From assembly GCA_019638185.1 (NCBI GenBank), contig JAHBUH010000007.1, forward strand, positions 124,001 to 188,000: a stretch of 64,000 bases of DNA, written 5' to 3'. The position numbers were made by a program, and so were the translations under genes. The notes beneath the pieces are model-generated. The model saw only the letters and a list, made by a program, of their open reading frames with translations, ran no database searches and was not told where the DNA came from. The stretch is from Leadbetterella sp. Its GTDB lineage: Bacteria > Bacteroidota > Bacteroidia > Cytophagales > Spirosomataceae. Of the stretch, positions 44,643 through 53,312 are shown piece after piece; within the stretch, counting starts at the first letter, position 1, and each line of letters opens with the position of its first letter.

Positions 44643-44740
44643 GAAGTGAAAATGCCAGGCGATGAAGGTAGGAAAATATTTTTATAAATACACTGAATAT
44701 TAATAAAAAATCTTTGTAAAAGGCAATTTGTCTTTCAGAC
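44643..44740. other. AT-rich upstream region of the DUF1549/DUF1553 operon
   Basis: About 100 bases between the operon start and dispersed element copy A. It should hold the promoter of the minus-strand operon, but I see no perfect -7 box and no gene. The gap of 375 bases to the DUF1080 gene is otherwise filled by the dispersed palindromic element and a short leader. Confidence 0.4.
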
Positions 44741-44960
44741 GGACCTACTTTTCCGCATCGGCGGACCGTTTGTAAAAAAGTAGGCGGCAGCGGCCAACCG
44801 TAAAAAAACATTCACAAAGCGGTTTGCCGCCCGATAATGTCCTGACTAGCAGTCTGCCCTGAAAAATTTGATTACCAATATTTTATAAACTTTCTCACTC
44901 TTTTGCCTATCAAATTATTCAAACGGACTATTTTGTGATATAAGGTACATTCTTATTTAT
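44741..44960 (+). repeat. Dispersed nested palindrome, copy A (longer form)
   Basis: About 220 bases that align with 52285-52441 in the same orientation. Shared blocks in order: GGACCTACTTTT, AAAAAAGTAGGC-like, AACATTCACAAA, ATAATGTCC, CTGAAAA(A)TTTGATT, TTTTGCC, ATCAAATT, ACGGACTATTTTGTGA, TAAGGTACA and TATTTAT. It differs from copy B by GC-rich insertions of about 14-19 bases, all in its left half. Ends are set by where the two copies stop matching. No open frame of note lies in it. Confidence 0.85.
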
Positions 44961-45017
44961 TTCTCTCGGAATATGGTAATTTTCTGATAGTTTTACCCTT
45001 GAAAAAACCTTTTTAGT

Positions 45018-45788
45018 ATGCGGTTATCCGGTTTGGTGACACTTATGCTGGTAGTGTGTTCGTGCAGTGCCACTAAAGAAAAAACGATTTTTAATGGTAA
45101 GAACCTGGAGGGGTGGACGCCGAAGATTTATCATCATGTATATGGTGATAATTATGCGAATACGTTCCGGGTGGAGGATGGGCTCATTAAGGTGCGGTAT
45201 GATGGCTACGACCAGTTCAGGGAGCGCTACGGTCACTTGTTTTATAAGACGCCCTATTCGCATTTTCACCTGACGCTGGAGTATCGGTTTAGTGGTATCT
45301 GGCGGAAGGATGCCCCCTCATATACGCACCTGAATTCCGGGGTGATGTTTCATTCCCAGGACCCGGCTACTATCCTGAAGGAGCAGGACTGGCCCATTTC
45401 GGTGGAGATGCAGTTCCTGGCTGAAGAAAAGCCGGGCGTGCCCCGCCCTACCGGCAATATGTGCTCACCGGGTACCGACGTGGTTTACCAGGGGCAGAAG
45501 TCGCCCAAACACTGTATCGATTCCCGTTCAAAAACCTATAAACCGGATGAATGGGTCAAAGCCGAGTTGATCGTTTACGGAGATTCCCTGGTGCAGCACC
45601 TCATTAACGGGGAAGTGGTGTTGGAATATACGAAACCCACTATAGGCGGTGGCGTGGTGAACGGCGCTGATCCGAAGATTTTTATCCCGGGAAAACCGCT
45701 GACCTCGGGTTATATCGGGCTGCAGAGCGAAGGCCAGGAAATTGATTTCCGGAATATCCGGATCCGGGATCTGAGTAAAAAGAAATGA
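45018..45788 (+). CDS. DUF1080 (3-keto-disaccharide hydrolase-like) lipoprotein
   Basis: A 256-residue protein with a lipoprotein leader (LMLVVCSCS, Cys16 likely lipidated) and one DUF1080 beta-sandwich domain: TIFNGKNLEGWTP at the start, LNSGVMFHSQDP in the middle, GYIGLQSEGQEIDFRNIRIRDL at the end. DUF1080 proteins are concanavalin-like folds; members act on 3-keto-glycosides made by Gfo/Idh enzymes. It is divergent from the Planctomycete-type cytochrome operon, with the dispersed element between them, and is followed by two hairpins. Confidence 0.92.
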   Translation: MRLSGLVTLMLVVCSCSATKEKTIFNGKNLEGWTPKIYHHVYGDNYANTFRVEDGLIKVRYDGYDQFRERYGHLFYKTPYSHFHLTLEYRFSGIWRKDAPSYTHLNSGVMFHSQDPATILKEQDWPISVEMQFLAEEKPGVPRPTGNMCSPGTDVVYQGQKSPKHCIDSRSKTYKPDEWVKAELIVYGDSLVQHLINGEVVLEYTKPTIGGGVVNGADPKIFIPGKPLTSGYIGLQSEGQEIDFRNIRIRDLSKKK

Positions 45789-45789
45789 C

Positions 45790-45844
45790 GGTGCCCGGAA
45801 AGGGACAGTTTATGGCAGTGGCGAACCGTCTCTTTCCAGGCACC
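45790..45844. terminator. Bidirectional hairpin 1 after the DUF1080 gene
   Basis: Arms GGTGCCcGGAAAGgGAC (45790-45806) and GTCtCTTTCCaGGCACC (45828-45844) pair with two mismatches. It lies between convergent genes. Confidence 0.7.
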
Positions 45845-45856
45845 ATCGGTATTTCC

Positions 45857-45893
45857 AAACCGTGGGGCCTCTTTAGACAGCCCCTGCCGGTTT
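45857..45893. terminator. Bidirectional hairpin 2 before the NTF2-like gene end
   Basis: Nested arms AAACCG and GGGGC (45857-45868) pair with GCCCC and CGGTTT (ending 45893), with small internal bulges. It forms a second hairpin behind hairpin 1 in the same 126-base gap. Confidence 0.6.
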
Positions 45894-45914
45894 AACAACA
45901 CCTTTTCAGATCAC

Positions 45915-46862
45915 CTACTTCTTCATCAGCATGCTCTCGCTGTAATACGCCGATTCGGAAATGATCTTTCCATTCTCGTCAAAACCCATGCTCAGGTGCA
46001 TCGGCAGCATGATGGCCTTCTTATCTGACTTCCGCACCAGGTTTATTTTCCACCAGGAGAGCACTTCGCGGCCATTGTCCATCTCGTATTCCAGGTAATC
46101 CGGGTAACCTATCATATCGATGCTTTTAATCTCAAAAAGGGTTCGAAATTGCTCAATATTGGCCTTTTCTTCCGCTTTATTGCGTGTTTTCCCCCATTCC
46201 GTGTTAATGTCATAAAACTCGGCATTGTCGCCGTAGTAGCTCATGTACTGATCAATATCCCCTTTTTCCCAGGCGTACATGGCCTTGCGGGCGGTATTGA
46301 CATTGGCATGGTGGTTATAGATGGTGCCGTTAGTGCGGTTAGAGAAGCTGGCAAAAATCTCATCCAGCACTTTCCCGTTAGCGTAACTGATGATCCGTTT
46401 GATCTTACCTTCTTTGGTGACATAATAAATGCGGAAACCCGCCGCATCCAGCTTCACGCCTGTGGTCTTGTGCACCCCTTTCAGGAGTACCCAGTTTTGT
46501 ACCACCACATCGCCGTTTTTGTTGTCTTTTTTGTATTCCAGGGCGTCAGGATAGGAACCGGGAATGGCCTCTATGGCAAAGTAGTCCAGCTGCCGGCTGT
46601 AATTCAGCAAAGTGCGCACATAGGTCAGCCTGTCTGATGACGGGAGCGCCGGGTCACTGGTGGTGCCGTTATACGCCTTAAAATCATCGGTTAAAAGACC
46701 GGACATTTTTGCGGAATCGCCTTCTACCGTGGCTTTCTCAAAAGCGGTCACCACTTTAAGGGCGGGATGGTCTATGTAAACGGTGCCGTTCTCATTTTTC
46801 TGGGCTGAAACGGTCAATATCCCGGGAAGGACCAGGGCTAAAAAACATACTACTCTTTTCAT
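45915..46862 (-). CDS. Exported protein with two tandem NTF2/SnoaL-like domains
   Basis: A 315-residue protein with a signal peptide (MKRVVCFLALVLPGILTVSAQ). Two similar halves follow (about 33-165 and 190-312), each with a helical opening (VVTAFEKATVEGDSAKMSGLLTDDFKAY and TARKAMYAWEKGDIDQYMSYYGDNAEFY) and then curved beta strands, as in the NTF2-like fold. The fold is used for binding or for simple enzymes; no activity can be named. The gene is divergent from the HTCS regulator, with direct repeats CCGGACAAA in the shared upstream region, suggesting it is a target of that regulator. Confidence 0.8.
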   Translation of the reverse strand: MKRVVCFLALVLPGILTVSAQKNENGTVYIDHPALKVVTAFEKATVEGDSAKMSGLLTDDFKAYNGTTSDPALPSSDRLTYVRTLLNYSRQLDYFAIEAIPGSYPDALEYKKDNKNGDVVVQNWVLLKGVHKTTGVKLDAAGFRIYYVTKEGKIKRIISYANGKVLDEIFASFSNRTNGTIYNHHANVNTARKAMYAWEKGDIDQYMSYYGDNAEFYDINTEWGKTRNKAEEKANIEQFRTLFEIKSIDMIGYPDYLEYEMDNGREVLSWWKINLVRKSDKKAIMLPMHLSMGFDENGKIISESAYYSESMLMKK

Positions 46863-46972
46863 AACAATGGTTTTTAATAGTTAAAAATTATTACTCCCCA
46901 AAGGTCATATCCGACAAGCTCGTTTTGTGAGGAGATTCCCCGCTTCTGATGCTACATTCCGGTCTTTTTTAC

Positions 46973-47001
46973 CCGGACAAACCGCCCATGATCCGGACAA
47001 A
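46973..47001. promoter_or_regulatory. Direct repeats CCGGACAAA, 20-bp spacing, between NTF2-like gene and HTCS
   Basis: CCGGACAAA occurs at 46973-46981 and again at 46993-47001, identical over nine bases with start-to-start spacing of exactly 20 bp (about two helical turns). AraC-type domains bind such direct repeats, and the HTCS encoded next to them ends in an AraC domain. A near-consensus -7 box for the NTF2-like gene (GACCTTTG, minus strand, about 46900-46907) lies downstream of the repeats, as expected for activation. Confidence 0.6.
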
Positions 47002-47070
47002 TCCGTCTTTTTACATGCGAAGCCCGAAAAAGTGTACCGGGTTATGTTATAAGCGGTTATCTTTACTGAT

Positions 47071-50000
47071 ATGATCAAGGGCCCCTATATTCATTTCCTG
47101 TTCTTCATTTTCATCTGCGGAAATGTGGCTTTTGCACAGCCGGGTACGGGCTTTGAAGTCATCTCCACAGCACAGGGGCTTTCGCAGGGACTGATCAATG
47201 ACATGATCCAGGACCGGGAGGGCTTCATCTGGATAGCTACCAAAGGCGGACTGAACCGCTACGACGGCTATAGCTTCAAGATCTTCACGAACGATCCCCA
47301 GGATGCCCTCTCTATCAGCAGTAATTCCATCAGCACCCTGCTGGAAGACCGGATGGGGAGATTATGGATAGGTACCTACGATGGCGGCGTTAATGTTTAT
47401 GATAAAAAGACCGGGCATTTTCTCCGGATCGGGCAAGGGTCCGGCCTCTCCAGTAACCGCATTGAATCTGACATGGCAGAACTGCCTGACGGACGCATCC
47501 TGGTCAGCCCGCAGGGAGGCCGCATCAATATTATTTCACTATCCGATGCCGGCAAGCCCCTTATCTCGTCATTAGATATTCCCGGAAACCGCAGCGCCCA
47601 ATGGGTTTTAAAGGATGAAAAGGGCCTGATCTGGATCAAGTGCCCCGATCATACTATTTATACTTTTAACCCTGCCACTTCGGGGTTCGGGCTTTTATTT
47701 GACGGGCACCGTTTTACAGCACTCATCGAAAAAACCGGCCGGTTTGTTTCTGCAAAATTCAGCCAGTCGGTTAACACAAAGGTCATTCCGGATATCCGGT
47801 CGGGGTTTATTGATTCCACCGGTAACCTGGTGGCCTCTTTCCTTACCGGAAAAGGAGGAAAGCTGCTGATGGATCATCGCTTTCCGCTGGAAACGGGTAC
47901 TCTGGGCTGTAATATCTTCGATTTCAGTTCAATAAAAGCCGGAGACGATATGAATCCCGTTTATGCCCGTAACCTGAAAACGGAGGTCAGAGATCAAAAT
48001 ATCAAGTGTCTCCTGCTGGACCGGTCAGGGGTGCTGTGGGTAGGCACCATGGGGCATGGTATCTATAAATACCGGATCCGAAGCGACCGTTTCTTCCCCC
48101 TGCTGCCCCATATGAGCATCCAGCGGCTAAGTACCTGGGATAAAGACAAGGTCTATGTACAGGGGTGGAGAACGGCGAAACTGCTCAATGCGCAGGGAGA
48201 AGAACTCCGAAGCCCGGTAGAAGCGGCGGTGAGCAATGCCCCGGCCTACATGAAAGTGCTGAAGGCCGCGAACGGCGACTACTGGATGTACTGGAACGGG
48301 GTAAAAAAAATGGTCCGGTATACAGCAGACATGAAATTAGCCGCTACTTACCCGGAACCCGTAGATCCGACCATCACAGAACAGCTGCAACCCCTGATAG
48401 AAGACCGCCGGGGCCGGATATGGGTGTGCGGTGCCAATGGCTCCCTGGCCCAGGTAAATCCGGCTACCGGCAGGCTTTCAAAGTTTGTGATTAACACCGC
48501 ACAATATACCGGCACCACTGCCCTTACCCAAACCAATGCCTTCTACGAAGACGGGCAGGGCATTTTCTGGCTGGGTACGGAACACGGTTTTGCCCGGCTG
48601 GAATTTCAGGATGATCAGACCATGCCCCACATAAAATGGTTTAAAAATATTCCCGGCGATCCCCGTTCTCTCAGCTATAATTATGTTTCCTGGTTTACCG
48701 ATGACCCCCGGAATCCCGATTACCTATGGGTCTGCACTAAAGGCGGCGGCCTTAACCGTATCCAAAAATCTACCGGGGAATTTATTCATTACACAACGAA
48801 AAACGGGCTGCCTAACGACGTGGTATACGGCGTGCTGGCCGACAAAGCCGGCAACCTGTGGGGCAGTACCAATAAAGGGTTATTTTGCCTGCCGGCAGGG
48901 AACAAAAAAGAAATACGGGTCTTCACCACCAGCGATGGCCTGCAGGCCGACGAATTTAACACCAATGCTTTTACCGCCCTTCCGGACGGCCACCTGGTGT
49001 TCGGCGGGGTAAACGGCCTCAATATTTTCAACCCTCAAAAAGTGCTGGCCTCCGGCTTTACCCCCGGGGTGTTTATCACCGGTATCCAGATAGGCAATAA
49101 AAACGTACTGCCTGGCGATGAAACCGGCGTACTGACCCAAACTATTGAGCAAACCTCCTCCATTACACTTCACTATTTGCAGGATGTACTGACCCTGGAA
49201 TTCTCCTCCCTCGATTTTACGGCGCCCCTGCAGAATAAATACCGCTACCGCCTGATAGGTATCGATAAAGAATGGGTAGAGAGCGGCACCCGTCGTACGG
49301 CCACCTATGTTCACCTGCCCTCCGGCAACTACATTTTCAAGGTCCAGGGAAGCAACAGCCAGGGCATCTGGAGCGATCAGGTTGCCGAATTAAAAATAAA
49401 GGTATTGCCGCCCTGGTGGTTAAGCTGGTGGGCCTACGGGGTCTATGCCTTACTGGCCGCAGGGCTGATCCGGGCCTATCTCCGGTTTAATGTTAACAAA
49501 GCCCGGCTGCAGTCGCAACTGAACTACGAGCAGATCGAGGCCAAACGGGTAAAAGAGCTGGACACCATTAAAACCCAACTGTATACCAATATCACCCACG
49601 AGTTCCGCACCCCGCTTACGGTGATCCTGGGCATGGCGCAGCAGGTGATGGACAAGCCCTCCGAACAGTTTGAAACCCGGATGGAGATGATCGTGCGGAA
49701 CGGCCGCAACCTGCTGAACCTGGTGAATCAGCTACTGGATCTTTCCAAGCTGGAAACCGGCAAAATGCAACTAAACGTATCAGGCGGGGACGTTATCGGG
49801 TTTCTGCGTTACGTGGTGGAGTCGTTCCAGTCGCTGGCCGAAAGCCAGCAGAAGCAACTGCATTTTTTAACGGACCTGGATGCGCTGTATATGAAGTATG
49901 ACCGGGAAAAACTGCGGCAGATAGTAACTAACCTGCTCTCGAATGCCATAAAGTTCACCCCCGAGAAAGGCAATATCTATATCGGGGTATTGGAGAACCC

Positions 50001-51213
50001 GGATCCTGACGACAGCACCACCCTCCTTATCAAAGTAAAAGATACCGGCATAGGAATCCCCCCCGAAGAACTGCCCTATGTGTTTGACCGTTTCTACCGG
50101 GCCGATAACAGTCACACCCGCAAAACCGAAGGTACGGGTATCGGCCTGGCCCTGACCAAGGAGCTGGTCAAGTTAATGGACGGCACCATTACGGTAAAGA
50201 GCCCGCCGGCCGGGGCCCATAAAGGCAGCGAGTTTACGGTAGCGCTTGCCTTAAAAAGGGTGGAGCCCGGTGACCTGAAAAAAGGGATAATTCCCGCGCC
50301 ACAGACGCGCGTGAACTCCCCTGTAGCTGAAAAGGGGGCAGAGGCCACAGGCGAGTTGAATGAGAAGAAAAAAGAGGTGATTCCCCAGGTGCCACAGGCA
50401 GCCGCGAACCCTCCCCTGCCGGAACGGAAAGACGCCACACTCCCGCTGATCCTGCTGGTGGAAGATAACGCCGATGTGGTGGCATACACGGCCTCCTGCC
50501 TGCCCGATTACCGGCTGGCCGTAGGTAAAGACGGCCGGGAGGGCCTGGAAATCGCCACCGACATTATTCCCGACCTGATCATCAGCGATGTCATGATGCC
50601 TTACATGGATGGTTTTGAGCTGGTGCACCGGCTGCGCCAGGATGAAAGTACCAGCCACGTCCCGGTGATCCTGCTCACCGCCAAAACAGACATCGCCAGC
50701 AAGATAGAGGGCATACAGCAGGGCGCTGACGCCTACCTGGAGAAACCCTTTCACAAGGAAGAGCTGCAGGCGCGGATCAGGAAGCTGCTGGAAATGCGCC
50801 AAAATCTACAGCAGTATTACCTTAAAAAGGCCGGTTTGAGCAGTGATCCGGCCGTACCCGCCGGCACCGTTCCTGACCCCACCCTGGACCCGGAAAACAG
50901 CTTCGTGAAACGGGTACGCGAAGCCATAGAGCAGAATTTTACCGATGTAAATTTCACCGTGGAAAAACTGTGCAAGCTGGTTTTCATGAGCCACTCCCAG
51001 CTGCACCGGAAGTTAGATGCCCTCACAGGCTGCTCCCCGAACCGCTTCATCCGGCTGATCCGCCTGAACAAAGCCAAAACGCTGCTGCTGAACCCGGAAA
51101 ACAGCATCGCCGCAGCAGCCCTGGAGTGCGGCTACCAGGATCCGGGGTATTTTGCACGGGTGTTTAAGCAGGAGTTCGGGGTGACGCCGCAGGAGTGGAG
51201 AACCGGGAGATAG
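47071..51213 (+). CDS. Hybrid two-component system regulator (HTCS)
   Basis: A 1380-residue one-protein signalling system typical of Bacteroidota glycan sensing. Layout: signal peptide (1-24), periplasmic two-component-propeller repeats (about 30-690, such as FIWIATKGGLNRYDGYSF and GRLWIGTYDGGVNVYD), Y_Y_Y domain (about 700-770), one membrane helix (about 787-806), HisKA with His843 in NITHEFRTPL, HATPase (NLLSNAIKFTP, DTGIGIP, GTGIGLAL), response receiver with Asp1173 in DLIISDVMMPYMDG, and an AraC DNA-binding domain (about 1280-1378). No SusC/SusD pair is adjacent, so its ligand is unclear; the divergent NTF2-like gene is its most likely local target. Confidence 0.96.
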   Translation: MIKGPYIHFLFFIFICGNVAFAQPGTGFEVISTAQGLSQGLINDMIQDREGFIWIATKGGLNRYDGYSFKIFTNDPQDALSISSNSISTLLEDRMGRLWIGTYDGGVNVYDKKTGHFLRIGQGSGLSSNRIESDMAELPDGRILVSPQGGRINIISLSDAGKPLISSLDIPGNRSAQWVLKDEKGLIWIKCPDHTIYTFNPATSGFGLLFDGHRFTALIEKTGRFVSAKFSQSVNTKVIPDIRSGFIDSTGNLVASFLTGKGGKLLMDHRFPLETGTLGCNIFDFSSIKAGDDMNPVYARNLKTEVRDQNIKCLLLDRSGVLWVGTMGHGIYKYRIRSDRFFPLLPHMSIQRLSTWDKDKVYVQGWRTAKLLNAQGEELRSPVEAAVSNAPAYMKVLKAANGDYWMYWNGVKKMVRYTADMKLAATYPEPVDPTITEQLQPLIEDRRGRIWVCGANGSLAQVNPATGRLSKFVINTAQYTGTTALTQTNAFYEDGQGIFWLGTEHGFARLEFQDDQTMPHIKWFKNIPGDPRSLSYNYVSWFTDDPRNPDYLWVCTKGGGLNRIQKSTGEFIHYTTKNGLPNDVVYGVLADKAGNLWGSTNKGLFCLPAGNKKEIRVFTTSDGLQADEFNTNAFTALPDGHLVFGGVNGLNIFNPQKVLASGFTPGVFITGIQIGNKNVLPGDETGVLTQTIEQTSSITLHYLQDVLTLEFSSLDFTAPLQNKYRYRLIGIDKEWVESGTRRTATYVHLPSGNYIFKVQGSNSQGIWSDQVAELKIKVLPPWWLSWWAYGVYALLAAGLIRAYLRFNVNKARLQSQLNYEQIEAKRVKELDTIKTQLYTNITHEFRTPLTVILGMAQQVMDKPSEQFETRMEMIVRNGRNLLNLVNQLLDLSKLETGKMQLNVSGGDVIGFLRYVVESFQSLAESQQKQLHFLTDLDALYMKYDREKLRQIVTNLLSNAIKFTPEKGNIYIGVLENPDPDDSTTLLIKVKDTGIGIPPEELPYVFDRFYRADNSHTRKTEGTGIGLALTKELVKLMDGTITVKSPPAGAHKGSEFTVALALKRVEPGDLKKGIIPAPQTRVNSPVAEKGAEATGELNEKKKEVIPQVPQAAANPPLPERKDATLPLILLVEDNADVVAYTASCLPDYRLAVGKDGREGLEIATDIIPDLIISDVMMPYMDGFELVHRLRQDESTSHVPVILLTAKTDIASKIEGIQQGADAYLEKPFHKEELQARIRKLLEMRQNLQQYYLKKAGLSSDPAVPAGTVPDPTLDPENSFVKRVREAIEQNFTDVNFTVEKLCKLVFMSHSQLHRKLDALTGCSPNRFIRLIRLNKAKTLLLNPENSIAAAALECGYQDPGYFARVFKQEFGVTPQEWRTGR

Positions 51214-51220
51214 TCTTCTA

Positions 51221-51301
51221 TTACTCTGACCAAACAGCCAGCTCGTAGCCGTCCGGGTCGGTAAATTGAAAACGTTTACCTCCGGGGAAACTATTTGTAC
51301 A
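51221..51301 (-). pseudogene. C-terminal remnant of a VOC (glyoxalase-like) gene
   Basis: Directly behind the hemB stop, in the same frame, the minus strand reads TNSFPGGKRFQFTDPDG, then YELAVWSE and a stop at 51221-51223. FTDPDGYELAVW is the characteristic last strand of VOC-fold proteins. The rest of the gene is missing and no start codon fits, so this is a fragment of about 26 codons left by a deletion that ended at the hemB stop. Confidence 0.7.
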
Positions 51302-52279
51302 TTACGCCCGATTCAGCAGCGCCGCCGCCTCCTTCGCAAAGTAGCTAAGGATAATGTCCGCGCCGGCCCGTTTCATGCTGATGAGCATTTCCATCATGGC
51401 CTTGTCGCCGTCTATCCAACCGTTTTGGGCGGCGGCTTTGATCATGGCGTATTCGCCGGACACGTTGTAGGCGGATATGGGCAGGTCAAAATTATCCTTC
51501 AGGGTTTTGATCACGTCCAGGTAGGAAAACGCCGGTTTCACCATCAGGATATCGGCGCCTTCCGCATAGTCCAGTTCGGCCTCCACCAGGGCTTCTTTTA
51601 CATTGGCCGGGTTCATCTGGTAGGTTTTTTTATCGCCGAATTTAGGGGCAGATTCCAGGGCATCGCGGAAGGGTCCGTAAAACGCCGAGGCATATTTAGC
51701 CGTGTAGGCCATGATGCCTGTGCCGGTAAAGCCTTCTGCGTCCAGGGCGCGGCGTATGGCCACTACCCGGCCGTCCATCATGTCTGACGGCCCGATGATG
51801 TCGGCACCGGCCCGGGCCTGGGCTACGGCCATTTTGACCAGCACTTCCACGGATTCGTCGTTCAGGATCTTCCCGTCTTTCACGATGCCGTCATGGCCGT
51901 CAGAGCTGTAAGGATCCAGCGCCACATCCGTCATCACCACCAGTTCCGGGAATTTGTTTTTGATTTCGGAAAGGGCACGGAGGTACAGGGTACCTTCTTT
52001 GATGCTTTCCGAGCCTACGGAATCTTTTTTGCTGTCCGGGTAATTGGGGAAAAGGCATATAGACCGGATGCCGTGCGCCACCACGTCTTCTATCTCCGTC
52101 AGCAGGGTATCCAATGAATACCGGAAAATGCCGGGCATGGAGCGGATGGCCACTTTTTCACCGCTTCCTTCCTGCACAAACATCGGGAAGATGAAATCGT
52201 TGACGGAAAGGGTGTTTTCAGCCACCATTTCGCGGAGGCCGGCGGATATACGGTTACGTCTGGGTCTTCTGGTTAACAT
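51302..52279 (-). CDS. hemB: Porphobilinogen synthase (delta-aminolevulinic acid dehydratase)
   Basis: A 325-residue enzyme of heme synthesis that condenses two 5-aminolevulinate molecules in the cytosol. Family segments include FPMFVQEGSGEKVAIRSMPG, TDVALDPYSSDGHDG, SAFYGPFRDALESAP, and the active-site DILMVKPAFSYLDV. The DPYSSDGH segment, without the Cys residues of zinc enzymes, suggests a magnesium-dependent type. It is transcribed away from the dispersed palindrome copy B, which lies in its upstream region, and it is followed at once by a VOC remnant. Confidence 0.97.
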   Translation of the reverse strand: MLTRRPRRNRISAGLREMVAENTLSVNDFIFPMFVQEGSGEKVAIRSMPGIFRYSLDTLLTEIEDVVAHGIRSICLFPNYPDSKKDSVGSESIKEGTLYLRALSEIKNKFPELVVMTDVALDPYSSDGHDGIVKDGKILNDESVEVLVKMAVAQARAGADIIGPSDMMDGRVVAIRRALDAEGFTGTGIMAYTAKYASAFYGPFRDALESAPKFGDKKTYQMNPANVKEALVEAELDYAEGADILMVKPAFSYLDVIKTLKDNFDLPISAYNVSGEYAMIKAAAQNGWIDGDKAMMEMLISMKRAGADIILSYFAKEAAALLNRA

Positions 52280-52284
52280 ATTTT

Positions 52285-52441
52285 GGACCTACTTTTTTCG
52301 AAAAAAGTAGGCAAAAAACATTCACAAAATAATGTCCTCCTGAAAATTTGATTTCCAAAGATTTATATATTTCCTTCCTTTTTGCCGATCAAATTTTTCA
52401 GACGGACTATTTTGTGAGGATAAGGTACAATTAGTATTTAT
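52285..52441 (+). repeat. Dispersed nested palindrome, copy B (compact form)
   Basis: About 157 bases, same orientation as copy A. It holds two structures: a 24-base perfect palindrome (arms CCTACTTTTTTC and GAAAAAAGTAGG, 52288-52311), and a long nested hairpin at 52322-52417 with outer arms TCACAAAATA/TATTTTGTGA, then GTCC/GGAC, then TGAAAATTTGAT/ATCAAATTTTTCA. It fills the gap between the dioxygenase stop and the hemB start, so it lies in the hemB upstream region. Confidence 0.88.
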
Positions 52442-52463
52442 GCTAAAGCTTCTTTACGGGGCT

Positions 52464-53312
52464 TTAGTCTTTTTTGAATAATCTGAACTCCAGGGCCACG
52501 CGGGTGGTGTCGGGTTCGGCATTCACGGCCAGGCCATGGATCAGGTGACCGGAGAAGAAAAGTACTTCACCGTAGTCTACTTTGGCTCTTTCCAGCTGGC
52601 TGCTTCCGCCCCATTCTTTGATCATGCGTACGCGGTACCTGTTGCCCTCCACCACAGCGCCGTTATGCGTTCTGAGCACCTTGTTTTCGGTGAACTTGTG
52701 GCTTCCCGGGGCTATGGGCAGCGAGGAGTTTTCGGTCACGCCCGCTATGGGAATCCAGAGGTTAACAAACGGCGGGATGTAGTCGGCCTCATCTACCCGC
52801 TCGTACACGTCTTTGTGCGGCGGGTTATAGTCGTTAGAGCCGGGGCGGTTTATCCGTACTATAATGTGCAGCTCTTTACCGTCTTCGGGGTTAATATCGG
52901 TCAGGGCAAAGCCCAGGATCTTCTCGAATTTCGGCAAAATCTGTTTCACGGGGAAGTTAAAATCTTCCGCAAAAAGGTCACGGGTCTTACCCACTACCTT
53001 AAAATGGTCTTCCCGGCTGGTTACCACGTCATGGTAGCGCTCCAGGCTGAAATCTGCTGGCACTTCTATGCCCAGCTCGTTCCGGATAATTTTAGCTACA
53101 CTCTGGGTCAGACCCTGCTTTAAAGATGCAAATTCCTCCTCGCTCAGGAATTTTGCCGAGGTATGGCCTTCATCGTACCAGGGCTGGCTATAAACGATGT
53201 CGGTGTCTTCTCTTGACAGTCTCACTTCCTTGCCGTAATCAAACGGCGGGCAGTCTTTTACGGAGACTTCGTACTTTTTATCACCAATCGTGTAGGACAG
53301 TATATCTTCCAT
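52464..53312 (-). CDS. 2-oxoglutarate/Fe(II) dioxygenase (phytanoyl-CoA dioxygenase-like)
   Basis: A 282-residue dioxygenase of the double-stranded beta-helix type. The Fe(II) triad is visible as His166-x-Asp168 in NPPHKDVYE and a distal His in SGHLIHGLAVN (His256 or His259), with an Arg (271 or 277) placed to bind 2-oxoglutarate. LWIPIAGVTENSSLPIAPGSH is the usual middle segment of the phytanoyl-CoA/PhyH-like group. The substrate is not known. Its promoter carries a Fur-like palindrome, so expression may depend on iron. The dispersed element copy B follows its stop. Confidence 0.8.
   Translation of the reverse strand: MEDILSYTIGDKKYEVSVKDCPPFDYGKEVRLSREDTDIVYSQPWYDEGHTSAKFLSEEEFASLKQGLTQSVAKIIRNELGIEVPADFSLERYHDVVTSREDHFKVVGKTRDLFAEDFNFPVKQILPKFEKILGFALTDINPEDGKELHIIVRINRPGSNDYNPPHKDVYERVDEADYIPPFVNLWIPIAGVTENSSLPIAPGSHKFTENKVLRTHNGAVVEGNRYRVRMIKEWGGSSQLERAKVDYGEVLFFSGHLIHGLAVNAEPDTTRVALEFRLFKKD

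What the first reader, a model, noticed from the sequence alone, without database searches (positions are those of the whole stretch)
44741..52441. A dispersed nested palindrome present twice, in intergenic DNA 7.5 kb apart
Seen directly: 44741-44960 and 52285-52441 share at least ten ordered blocks in the same orientation (GGACCTACTTTT ... TTCACAAA ... ATAATGTCC ... GAAAA-TTTGATT ... TTTTGCC ... ATCAAATT ... ACGGACTATTTTGTGA ... TAAGGTACA). Copy B folds into a long nested hairpin whose outer 10-bp arms are perfect, plus a separate 24-bp perfect palindrome at its left end. Both copies lie upstream of a gene start (DUF1549 operon/DUF1080; hemB). Copy A carries GC-rich insertions of about 14-19 bp in the left half only. 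No transposase is present, so it resembles a non-autonomous MITE- or REP-like family or a structured RNA spread through the genome. I know of no description of this sequence.
Basis: partly seen in the sequence, partly recalled or inferred. Interest (0 to 1): 0.75.

Follow-up and report, generated by a model that had tools for sequence, protein, structure and literature searches.

The report
Mobile hairpin element with nested mini-hairpins
The two palindromic stretches belong to a family of small jumping DNA pieces in Lacihabitans/Leadbetterella-type bacteria that carry the same kind of foldable hairpin, kept by matched changes in both arms, on two different transposon shells, and that gain and lose tiny hairpins inside it.

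Summary
Copies A and B match at E = 3.5e-19, and four copies were found in the genome. A covariance model finds the element in 10 of 10 genus genomes, own included, and 30 of 222 family genomes. The core is a palindromic hairpin, an A-run, and a long bulged hairpin with a variable loop and conserved tail. Its arms covary: 22 distinct arm pairs, 0 of 5000 permutations as good. In relatives some copies are insertions with empty sites, and 18 elements are MITEs with one of two unrelated terminal repeats, the best preserved with 7-9-bp target duplications. Each repeat also flanks a DDE-transposase insertion sequence. Most copies, including all four own ones, show no clear terminal repeats. Of 101 copies, 32 carry 15-16-nt GC hairpins, near-exact indels between orthologous copies. 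Hairpins or loops are swapped at orthologous sites. On the minus strand the core looks like an intrinsic terminator; its left end mostly faces gene starts (49 of 69 loci). Best reading: a MITE-type family with a conserved terminator-like core; function untested.

The parts
44730..44960 (+). Copy A of the hairpin core, divergent-gene context, with four GC-rich mini-hairpin inserts
   Evidence: R1 match 44787-44964, 48.3 bits
44744..44784 (+). Copy A hairpin 1 (CCTACTTTT ... AAAAGTAGG) with a 16-nt mini-hairpin in its loop
44753..44768 (+). mini-hairpin module CCGC-ATCG-GCGG-ACCG (hairpin 1 loop)
   Evidence: sequence; same site in other copies
44785..44800 (+). mini-hairpin module CGGC-AGCG-GCCA-ACCG (after hairpin 1; one mismatch in its stem)
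   Evidence: sequence; compare copies C and D
44819..44833 (+). mini-hairpin module GCGG-TTTG-CCGC-CCG (5' outer arm)
   Evidence: sequence; same site
44844..44858 (+). mini-hairpin module GACT-AGC-AGTC-TGCC (internal loop)
   Evidence: sequence; same site
44860..44921 (+). Copy A inner stem with variable loop (arms 44860-44872 / 44909-44921)
52285..52444 (+). Copy B of the hairpin core, between a PhyH-like gene and hemB, both on the minus strand
   Evidence: R1 match 136.4 bits
52288..52311 (+). Copy B hairpin 1, 24-bp perfect palindrome
   Evidence: folded
52312..52319 (-). CAAAAAAC run; on the minus strand a T-run right after the long hairpin (terminator-like)
   Evidence: family-wide
52322..52417 (+). 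Copy B long hairpin: outer arms 52322-52331 / 52408-52417, bulge, TCC/GGA, internal loop, inner stem, variable loop
52421..52441 (+). conserved 3' tail TAAGGTACAATTAGTATTTAT
   Evidence: compare the consensus

Best explanation
Copies A and B are two of four resident copies of a dispersed, non-autonomous element whose conserved part is a structured hairpin core. Shown in relatives: cores are inserted between genes, and 18 of the elements examined are MITE-type, sharing terminal inverted repeats with DDE-transposase insertion sequences, with two unrelated repeat types. The paired arms are kept by compensatory changes. Read on the minus strand the core has the anatomy of an intrinsic terminator, a long hairpin followed at once by T7-8, and its left end preferentially faces gene starts. 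Inferred: a trans-acting IS transposase moves the shell; once inserted, the core is retained because it is harmless or useful as a terminator or insulator in one orientation; and exchange among copies (gene conversion) homogenises cores and swaps hairpins and modules while the terminal repeats decay. The own-genome copies would then be cores whose shells have decayed, or cores placed by such exchange.
For: MITE part: empty sites for two G144 copies in relatives (first site clean in G145, G150, G149; second in G145, G150, G143, G148, G149) and for further copies. TIR1 ACTAAAGTTTCGG at both ends with at least 11 of 13 matches in 8 of 101 copies, plus seven TIR1 and three TIR2 (TACTGGCATCCGA type) elements found through their ends. 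Repeated flank sequence of 7-9 bp when the repeat is read from CTAAAG or TACTGG, e.g. TTAAATAA, TTAATTAA, TTAACTTTA, TTTTGGAAA, AATTTTTAT. Best-pair TIR+TSD score >= 19 in 6 of 101 copies against 0 in each of three re-paired controls (98, 101, 101 pairs); >= 15 in 18 against 6, 3 and 6. TIR2 flanks a 1413-bp IS with a DDE_Tnp_1 ORF (3.6e-21) and TSD ATTTTTTTA; TIR1 flanks a 1604-bp IS with split ORFs, one DDE_Tnp_1 at 6.6e-9, the other only a DDE_5 match below its cut-off. Structure: 22 distinct outer-arm pairs, own-pair complementarity 8.2 of 10 against 5.9 for cross pairs, 0 of 5000 permutations. Terminator-like: A-run (minus-strand T-run) in 96 of 101 copies; hairpin closes within 6 nt of it in 64 of 66 locus groups folded. 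Orientation: left gene on the minus strand in 49 of 69 groups (p = 3e-4); tandem contexts 33 against 13 (p = 0.002).
Against: Most of the 101 copies, including the four own-genome copies and the 13 sub-family-3 copies of G147, show no clear terminal repeats, so shell decay there is inference. The window's own genome has only a distant (30% identity) relative of the TIR2 transposase. The orientation bias is stronger for the left gene (49 of 69) than for transcription entering at the right end, where a terminator would act (40 of 69, summed from the same table), so termination alone does not explain it. A simple terminator does not need the conserved bulge and internal loop (ATGATCCTC / AACGGAC). 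No transcription data exist here. The locus groups merge some non-orthologous neighbours, and the covariation permutation does not correct for relatedness.
Confidence: 0.62

Rival explanations
1. The core is a mobile or convertible hairpin unit in its own right; the MITE shells are secondary carriers that captured it, so spread does not depend on terminal repeats.
For: 13 sub-family-3 copies of G147 show no shared sequence outside the core. Two G147 copies 5 kb apart in opposite orientation have near-identical loops (36 of 37) but background-level flanks (0.50/0.47; background mean 0.50). The same architecture sits in two unrelated TIR shells and in 285-300-bp tandem arrays in G142.
Against: Gene conversion between resident cores gives the same picture without movement. 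No target duplication or dedicated enzyme for the bare core was found; no partner gene recurs nearby (402 ORFs clustered). The empty sites examined hold 255-391 bp of extra DNA, more than the core.
Confidence: 0.25
2. The core is a conserved small-RNA gene or cis-acting RNA, copied around with its promoter.
For: Compensatory arms; sequence-conserved tail GGAACAATTAGTATTTATT and conserved ATATACTTTG just upstream.
Against: Loops differ even between several orthologous loci; the upstream motif does not have the spacing of the Bacteroidetes -33/-7 promoter (recalled, not tested); no neighbour gene family recurs.
Confidence: 0.15
3. A REP/REPIN system moved by a RAYT (Y1) transposase.
For: Mini-hairpins with a short unpaired tail resemble REPs; Y1 genes occur in 9 of 10 genus genomes.
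Against: 0 core matches in 30 Y1 loci; none of those loci has a mini-hairpin module of the form searched; own genome has four cores and no Y1 match; modules lie mostly inside cores.
Confidence: 0.04
4. Integron-like attC sites (bulged folded sites in arrays).
For: The extra bases lie mainly on one arm; several copies lie 1-2.5 kb apart in one orientation.
Against: ORFs between copies look like ordinary chromosomal genes and no recurring gene was found; 18 elements have transposon-type TIRs. Integrases were not searched for by profile.
Confidence: 0.02

Closest known systems
Prokaryotic IS-derived MITEs (Correia elements, PMC10969869 passages; MITECca01 of Cardinium, PMC9769881 passages)
   Same: short, intergenic, no coding sequence, TIRs shared with an autonomous IS, target duplications, stem-loop structure
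   Different: the internal core is kept by compensatory change, is shared by two unrelated TIR families, and carries optional 15-16-nt hairpin modules; MITECca01 derives from an IS982-family element
SPRITE / BOX / RUP repeats of Streptococcus pneumoniae (review PMC10969869, passages)
   Same: small intergenic repeats, one type Rho-independent-terminator-like, elements inserting into one another
   Different: different phylum; the nested units here are 15-16-nt hairpins at fixed sites inside one core
REP / REPIN elements (PMC3733652, passages)
   Same: short palindromes with an unpaired tetranucleotide at one end (compare the modules)
   Different: no RAYT link found, module tail is usually (A/T)CCG rather than GTAG or CGTC, and modules lie mostly inside the core
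Mitochondrial GC clusters and double-hairpin elements (PMC4478555, search listing and start of abstract)
   Same: tiny GC-rich hairpins inserted in AT-rich DNA (partly recalled)
   Different: organellar; no known relation

Membership tests
MITE | short element without coding sequence | tested here: met
   300-405 bp between TIRs; 3 of 98 hits overlap an ORF prediction of 100 aa or more
MITE | terminal inverted repeats | tested here: met
   TIR1 and TIR2 in relatives, 18 elements; not found for the four own-genome copies nor for most of the 101
MITE | target-site duplication | tested here: met
   e.g. TTTTGGAAA, AATTTTTAT, TTAATTAA, TTAACTTTA; scores >= 19 in 6 of 101 against 0 in each control; several L241-L245 elements show short or no clear duplications
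MITE | parental autonomous IS with the same ends | tested here: met
   L240 (TIR2, DDE_Tnp_1 3.6e-21) and L239 (TIR1, split ORFs)
MITE | insertion polymorphism (empty sites) | tested here: met
MITE | mobilisation in trans by the parental transposase | not testable with these tools
   needs an experiment
Conserved structured RNA/DNA element | compensatory base changes | tested here: met
   0 of 5000 permutations; the control does not correct for relatedness
Conserved structured RNA/DNA element | match to a known Rfam family | tested here: not met
   a tRNA elsewhere at gathering threshold, and two sub-threshold matches outside the copies
Intrinsic terminator | stable hairpin directly followed by a T-run | tested here: met
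   minus strand, 64 of 66 groups folded
Intrinsic terminator | transcripts end there | not testable with these tools
   no RNA data
REP/RAYT | RAYT gene flanked by the repeat | tested here: not met
   0 of 30 loci
Integron attC | array with integrase and cassettes | tested here: inconclusive
   no recurring neighbour gene; integrase not searched by profile

The most novel reading that the evidence does not exclude
The hairpin core is an autonomous evolutionary unit: it spreads or is copied as folded DNA from core edge to core edge, hitch-hikes on unrelated IS shells, has its hairpins swapped wholesale at fixed loci, and is itself invaded at fixed sites by 15-16-nt mini-hairpins that insert near-exactly without duplication. 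That would make these mini-hairpins among the smallest mobile DNA units described, nested three deep.
Probability: 0.2. Interest if true: 0.82.

Novelty: new variant of a known kind. Interest (0 to 1): 0.58.

Why it matters
It gives a natural system, in a genus where empty and filled sites can be compared, for asking why a transposon passenger keeps a folded core by compensatory change while its ends decay. It also offers a test of whether 15-16-nt hairpins can move, or be gained and lost exactly, in a bacterial chromosome. If the terminator reading holds, these elements would change operon read-through where they land, including upstream of hemB.

Tried and rejected
REP/RAYT origin: rejected. 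Rfam identity: none. Partner gene near copies: 402 ORFs clustered, no family recurring at more than 3 loci of one genome, and the one reaching 3 looks by eye like an ABC-transporter ATPase. Promoter reading of the conserved ATATACTTTG: spacing does not fit the recalled Bacteroidetes consensus, left open. A TIR for sub-family 3: none found. The named-genome scan with a pattern of 19 fixed bases returned 14 stretches; 4 are this genus, the other 10 were not examined and are probably chance. The listing of the TIR1 pattern search was cut off, and its reversed-pattern control had as many or more matches than the pattern in most genomes, so single TIR1 matches mean little and only facing pairs were used. 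Some rows that labels EMPTY (G149:C113 against three species) are in fact filled by a core of another sub-family and are not counted. Mean values mix true orthologous pairs with neighbouring loci; only named pairs are used here. Part of the printed output was cut; the missing rows were printed. Literature: six searches listed no description of this element; PMC10969869, PMC9769881 and PMC3733652 were seen as passages, other papers as listings and starts of abstracts.

Rows dropped: the 101-copy set used was picked by hand from the listing. Left out were the G142 tandem-array rows, minus-strand self-matches, several weaker rows and the part not listed. One search used 36 of these, 57 left flanks, 48 of 70 locus groups, 71 of 101. 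One search dropped the three G146 rows. One search scored at most 13 candidates per genome, at most 150, at most 7, at most 3.
Full report
OBSERVATION. The two stretches are real repeats. Searching the window's own genome (4.22 Mb, 39 contigs) with copy B gives copy A at E = 3.5e-19 and two more copies, on contigs C1 and C18 (sequences). A covariance model (R1), built from nine copies of the same architecture, finds four distinct places in the own genome (five rows, one being the reverse strand of copy B), and matches at E <= 0.001 in 10 of 10 genus genomes, own included, with 5-33 rows each. The counts include reverse-strand self-matches and, for G142, tandem arrays. At family level 30 of 222 genomes match at E <= 0.01. 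At order level 15 of 390 match at E <= 1e-4, in 8 of 129 genera, with weak matches outside the family. Contig lengths identify G150 with Lacihabitans sp. CCS-44, G148 with a Leadbetterella sp. MAG and G147 with MAG LEAD1.

ANATOMY. Read as in the window, the core runs: a small GC-rich hairpin (GTCGCC-TTTCC-GGCGGGGAC or GTGTGCC-TTGCC-AGGCGGGC type); hairpin 1 (TTACTTTTTTTTGAAAAAAAGTAA and variants); CAAAAAAACA; an outer arm of about 10 nt; ATGATCCTC; an inner arm of about 13 nt; a variable loop of about 30-40 nt; the inner 3' arm; AACGGAC; the outer 3' arm; and the tail TATAAGGAACAATTAGTATTTATT. Hairpin 1, the A-run, ATCCTC/AACGGAC and the tail are conserved in sequence; the arms are conserved as pairs. 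The 101 copies fall into 70 locus groups; one copy per group was taken and 48 had both anchors. They give 22 distinct outer-arm pairs, for example TCACAAAATA/TATTTTGTGA, TTTCTGTGCA/TGCACAGAAA, TTTTTGTGTA/TACACAAAAA and CTTCTGAACA/TGTTCAGAAG. Own-pair complementarity is 8.2 of 10 against 5.9 for cross pairs, 10 of 22 own pairs are perfect against 3.5% of cross pairs, and no permutation of 5000 is as good. Four of the imperfect pairs are arms into which a mini-hairpin has been inserted, and three others are misframed by a shifted anchor. Copy B folds far better than shuffles as RNA (z = -7.66) and as DNA (z = -5.10).

MOBILITY. In G144 two cores sit between adjacent same-strand genes, where relatives have only a few bases. 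At the first site G144 has 255 bp against -4 in G145, G150 and G149, while G143 has 99 bp of other sequence. At the second it has 272-284 bp against -5 to 6 in G145, G150, G143, G148 and G149. Further empty sites: G145:C96:255536 and G148:C251:34638 (one orthologous insertion) against G150 and G143; G150:C62:53818 against G144; G150:C6 and G148:C90 against G149. The inserted DNA is longer than the core. In one sub-family the ends are ACTAAAGTTTCGG ... CCGAAACTTTAGT, about 60 bp left and about 95 bp right of the model hit; 8 of 101 copies have both ends at 11 or more of 13 matches. In another the ends are TACTGGCATCCGA .... Ten more elements were found through their ends: seven with TIR1 and three with TIR2. 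Duplicated flanks of 7-9 bp are seen in the best preserved copies; several others show shorter or no clear duplications. The TIR1 pair flanks a 1604-bp IS with two DDE-like ORFs (L239), and the TIR2 pair flanks a 1413-bp IS (L240) with a DDE_Tnp_1 ORF, a 19-bp perfect repeat and a 9-bp duplication. A relative of the L240 transposase is found in 3 of 10 genus genomes, in the own genome only at 30% identity. So two unrelated IS types have small derivatives carrying the same kind of core. Most of the 101 copies, however, show no clear terminal repeats.

CORES WITHOUT SHELLS. The own-genome type (sub-family 3) has no detectable TIR. In 13 G147 copies nothing is shared beyond the core, and none of the four own copies reached the TIR/TSD reporting score. 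At the hemB locus the syntenic intergenic region of G142 lacks the core (139 bp against 236 bp between aligned blocks). Whether such cores are old MITEs with decayed ends or bare cores placed by exchange is open. Two G147 copies 5 kb apart in opposite orientation share 36 of 37 loop bases while their flanks are at background, which suggests that core sequence is copied from core edge to core edge.

EXCHANGE. At orthologous loci the hairpin can differ wholesale. G143:C174 and G148:C196 have TCACAAA-type arms, whereas G144:C1, with the same left flank, has TTTTCTGAAC/GTTCAGA-type arms and another loop. G144:C35 and G150:C13:11430 share flanks (0.94/0.94) and arms (0.91/0.84) but not the loop (0.45); the loop of G144:C35 is closer (0.75) to the neighbouring copy G150:C13:13835. 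I infer gene conversion. Other orthologous pairs keep their loops (for example G145:C8/G144:C194 identical, G148:C196/G143:C174 0.97).

MINI-HAIRPINS. Copy A has four GC-rich inserts of 15-16 nt: a 4-nt stem, a 3-4-nt loop, the matching stem (one mismatch in one of them), and a tail ending CCG or GCC. Of the 101 copies, 32 carry at least one module of the strict form searched for. Modules are largely site-specific in sequence: mostly GCGRGTCGYCGCACCG in hairpin 1, CCGCNNCGGCGG(A/T)CCG in the 5' arm, GACTAGCCGTCCGCC or GCCTAGGCGGCCCCC in the internal loop, and a reverse-oriented CCGAAACGTCGGACCG in the 3' arm. Between orthologous copies they appear as near-exact insertions or deletions: G144:C15/G150:C65, G148:C240/G150:C54, G143:C174/G148:C196 and G145:C96/G148:C251. 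The hairpin-1 motif has 20 exact matches in 7 of 10 genomes against 0 for the reversed pattern; 14 of the 20 lie in R1 matches listed by coordinates. Of 39 generic module hits in 539 kb, 30 lay in the 101 cores. Of the other 9, six lie by eye in further core copies (L121, L166, L198, L213) and three do not.

FUNCTION. On the minus strand the long hairpin runs directly into the T-run. The run is present in 96 of 101 copies, and the fold closes within 6 nt of it in 64 of 66 groups. Orientation is not random: the left neighbour reads away from the element in 49 of 69 locus groups (p = 3e-4), and in tandem gene pairs the minus strand is the sense strand in 33 against 13 (p = 0.002). Both window copies have a minus-strand left neighbour, and copy B ends 5 nt from the hemB start. 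Against a pure terminator role, the bias is weaker for transcription entering at the right end (40 of 69), and the conserved bulge and internal loop are unexplained. The most likely mechanism is therefore a MITE-type passenger whose core terminates or insulates transcription in one orientation and is tolerated or kept where that does no harm. The movement history is shown by comparison; the transcriptional effect is inferred.

KNOWN OR NEW. MITEs with stem-loop transcripts, and terminator-like repeats that insert into one another (SPRITE, BOX, RUP), are described (review PMC10969869, passages). An IS-derived MITE is known in Cardinium (PMC9769881, passages; its parent is IS982-family). REPs are tagged GTAG or CGTC (PMC3733652, passages). 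Six searches of the library listed no description of this core; the library lacks most subscription papers. I rate it a new variant of a known kind: a MITE family whose covarying core is shared by two unrelated IS shells and is itself decorated with 15-16-nt hairpins.

Noticed in passing
L119:2282-10749; also L117, L118 (G142:C1): The same core architecture (ATGTCCTC / AAACGGAC / AAAGGAACATTAGTATTTATT) occurs as tandem arrays with a period of about 285-300 bp in a single-contig Leadbetterella-type genome.
   Followed up: partly
L137, L139 (Y1 transposase loci): Y1 transposase genes in the genus are followed by their own, different palindromes (GGCTAAAGCC, CTCCAGATAAATCTGGAG).
   Followed up: no
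window 52442-52468: A second, plus-strand terminator-like hairpin (GCTAAAGC...GCTTTAGT CTTTTTT) directly right of copy B, overlapping the end of the PhyH-like gene.
   Followed up: no
left flanks of cores, e.g. L182, L198: ATATACTTTG is conserved immediately left of the first mini-hairpin in many copies; promoter, end motif or protein site is unresolved.
   Followed up: partly
G284, G409, G419, G404 (order level, small genomes): Weak R1 matches (E 8e-7 to 8e-5) in 1-1.9 Mb genomes of another family; not inspected.
   Followed up: no
G149:C113:246377 against G143:C116 / G144:C180 / G150:C60: The same intergenic region holds a core of a different sub-family in G149 than in the other three species.
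   Followed up: partly
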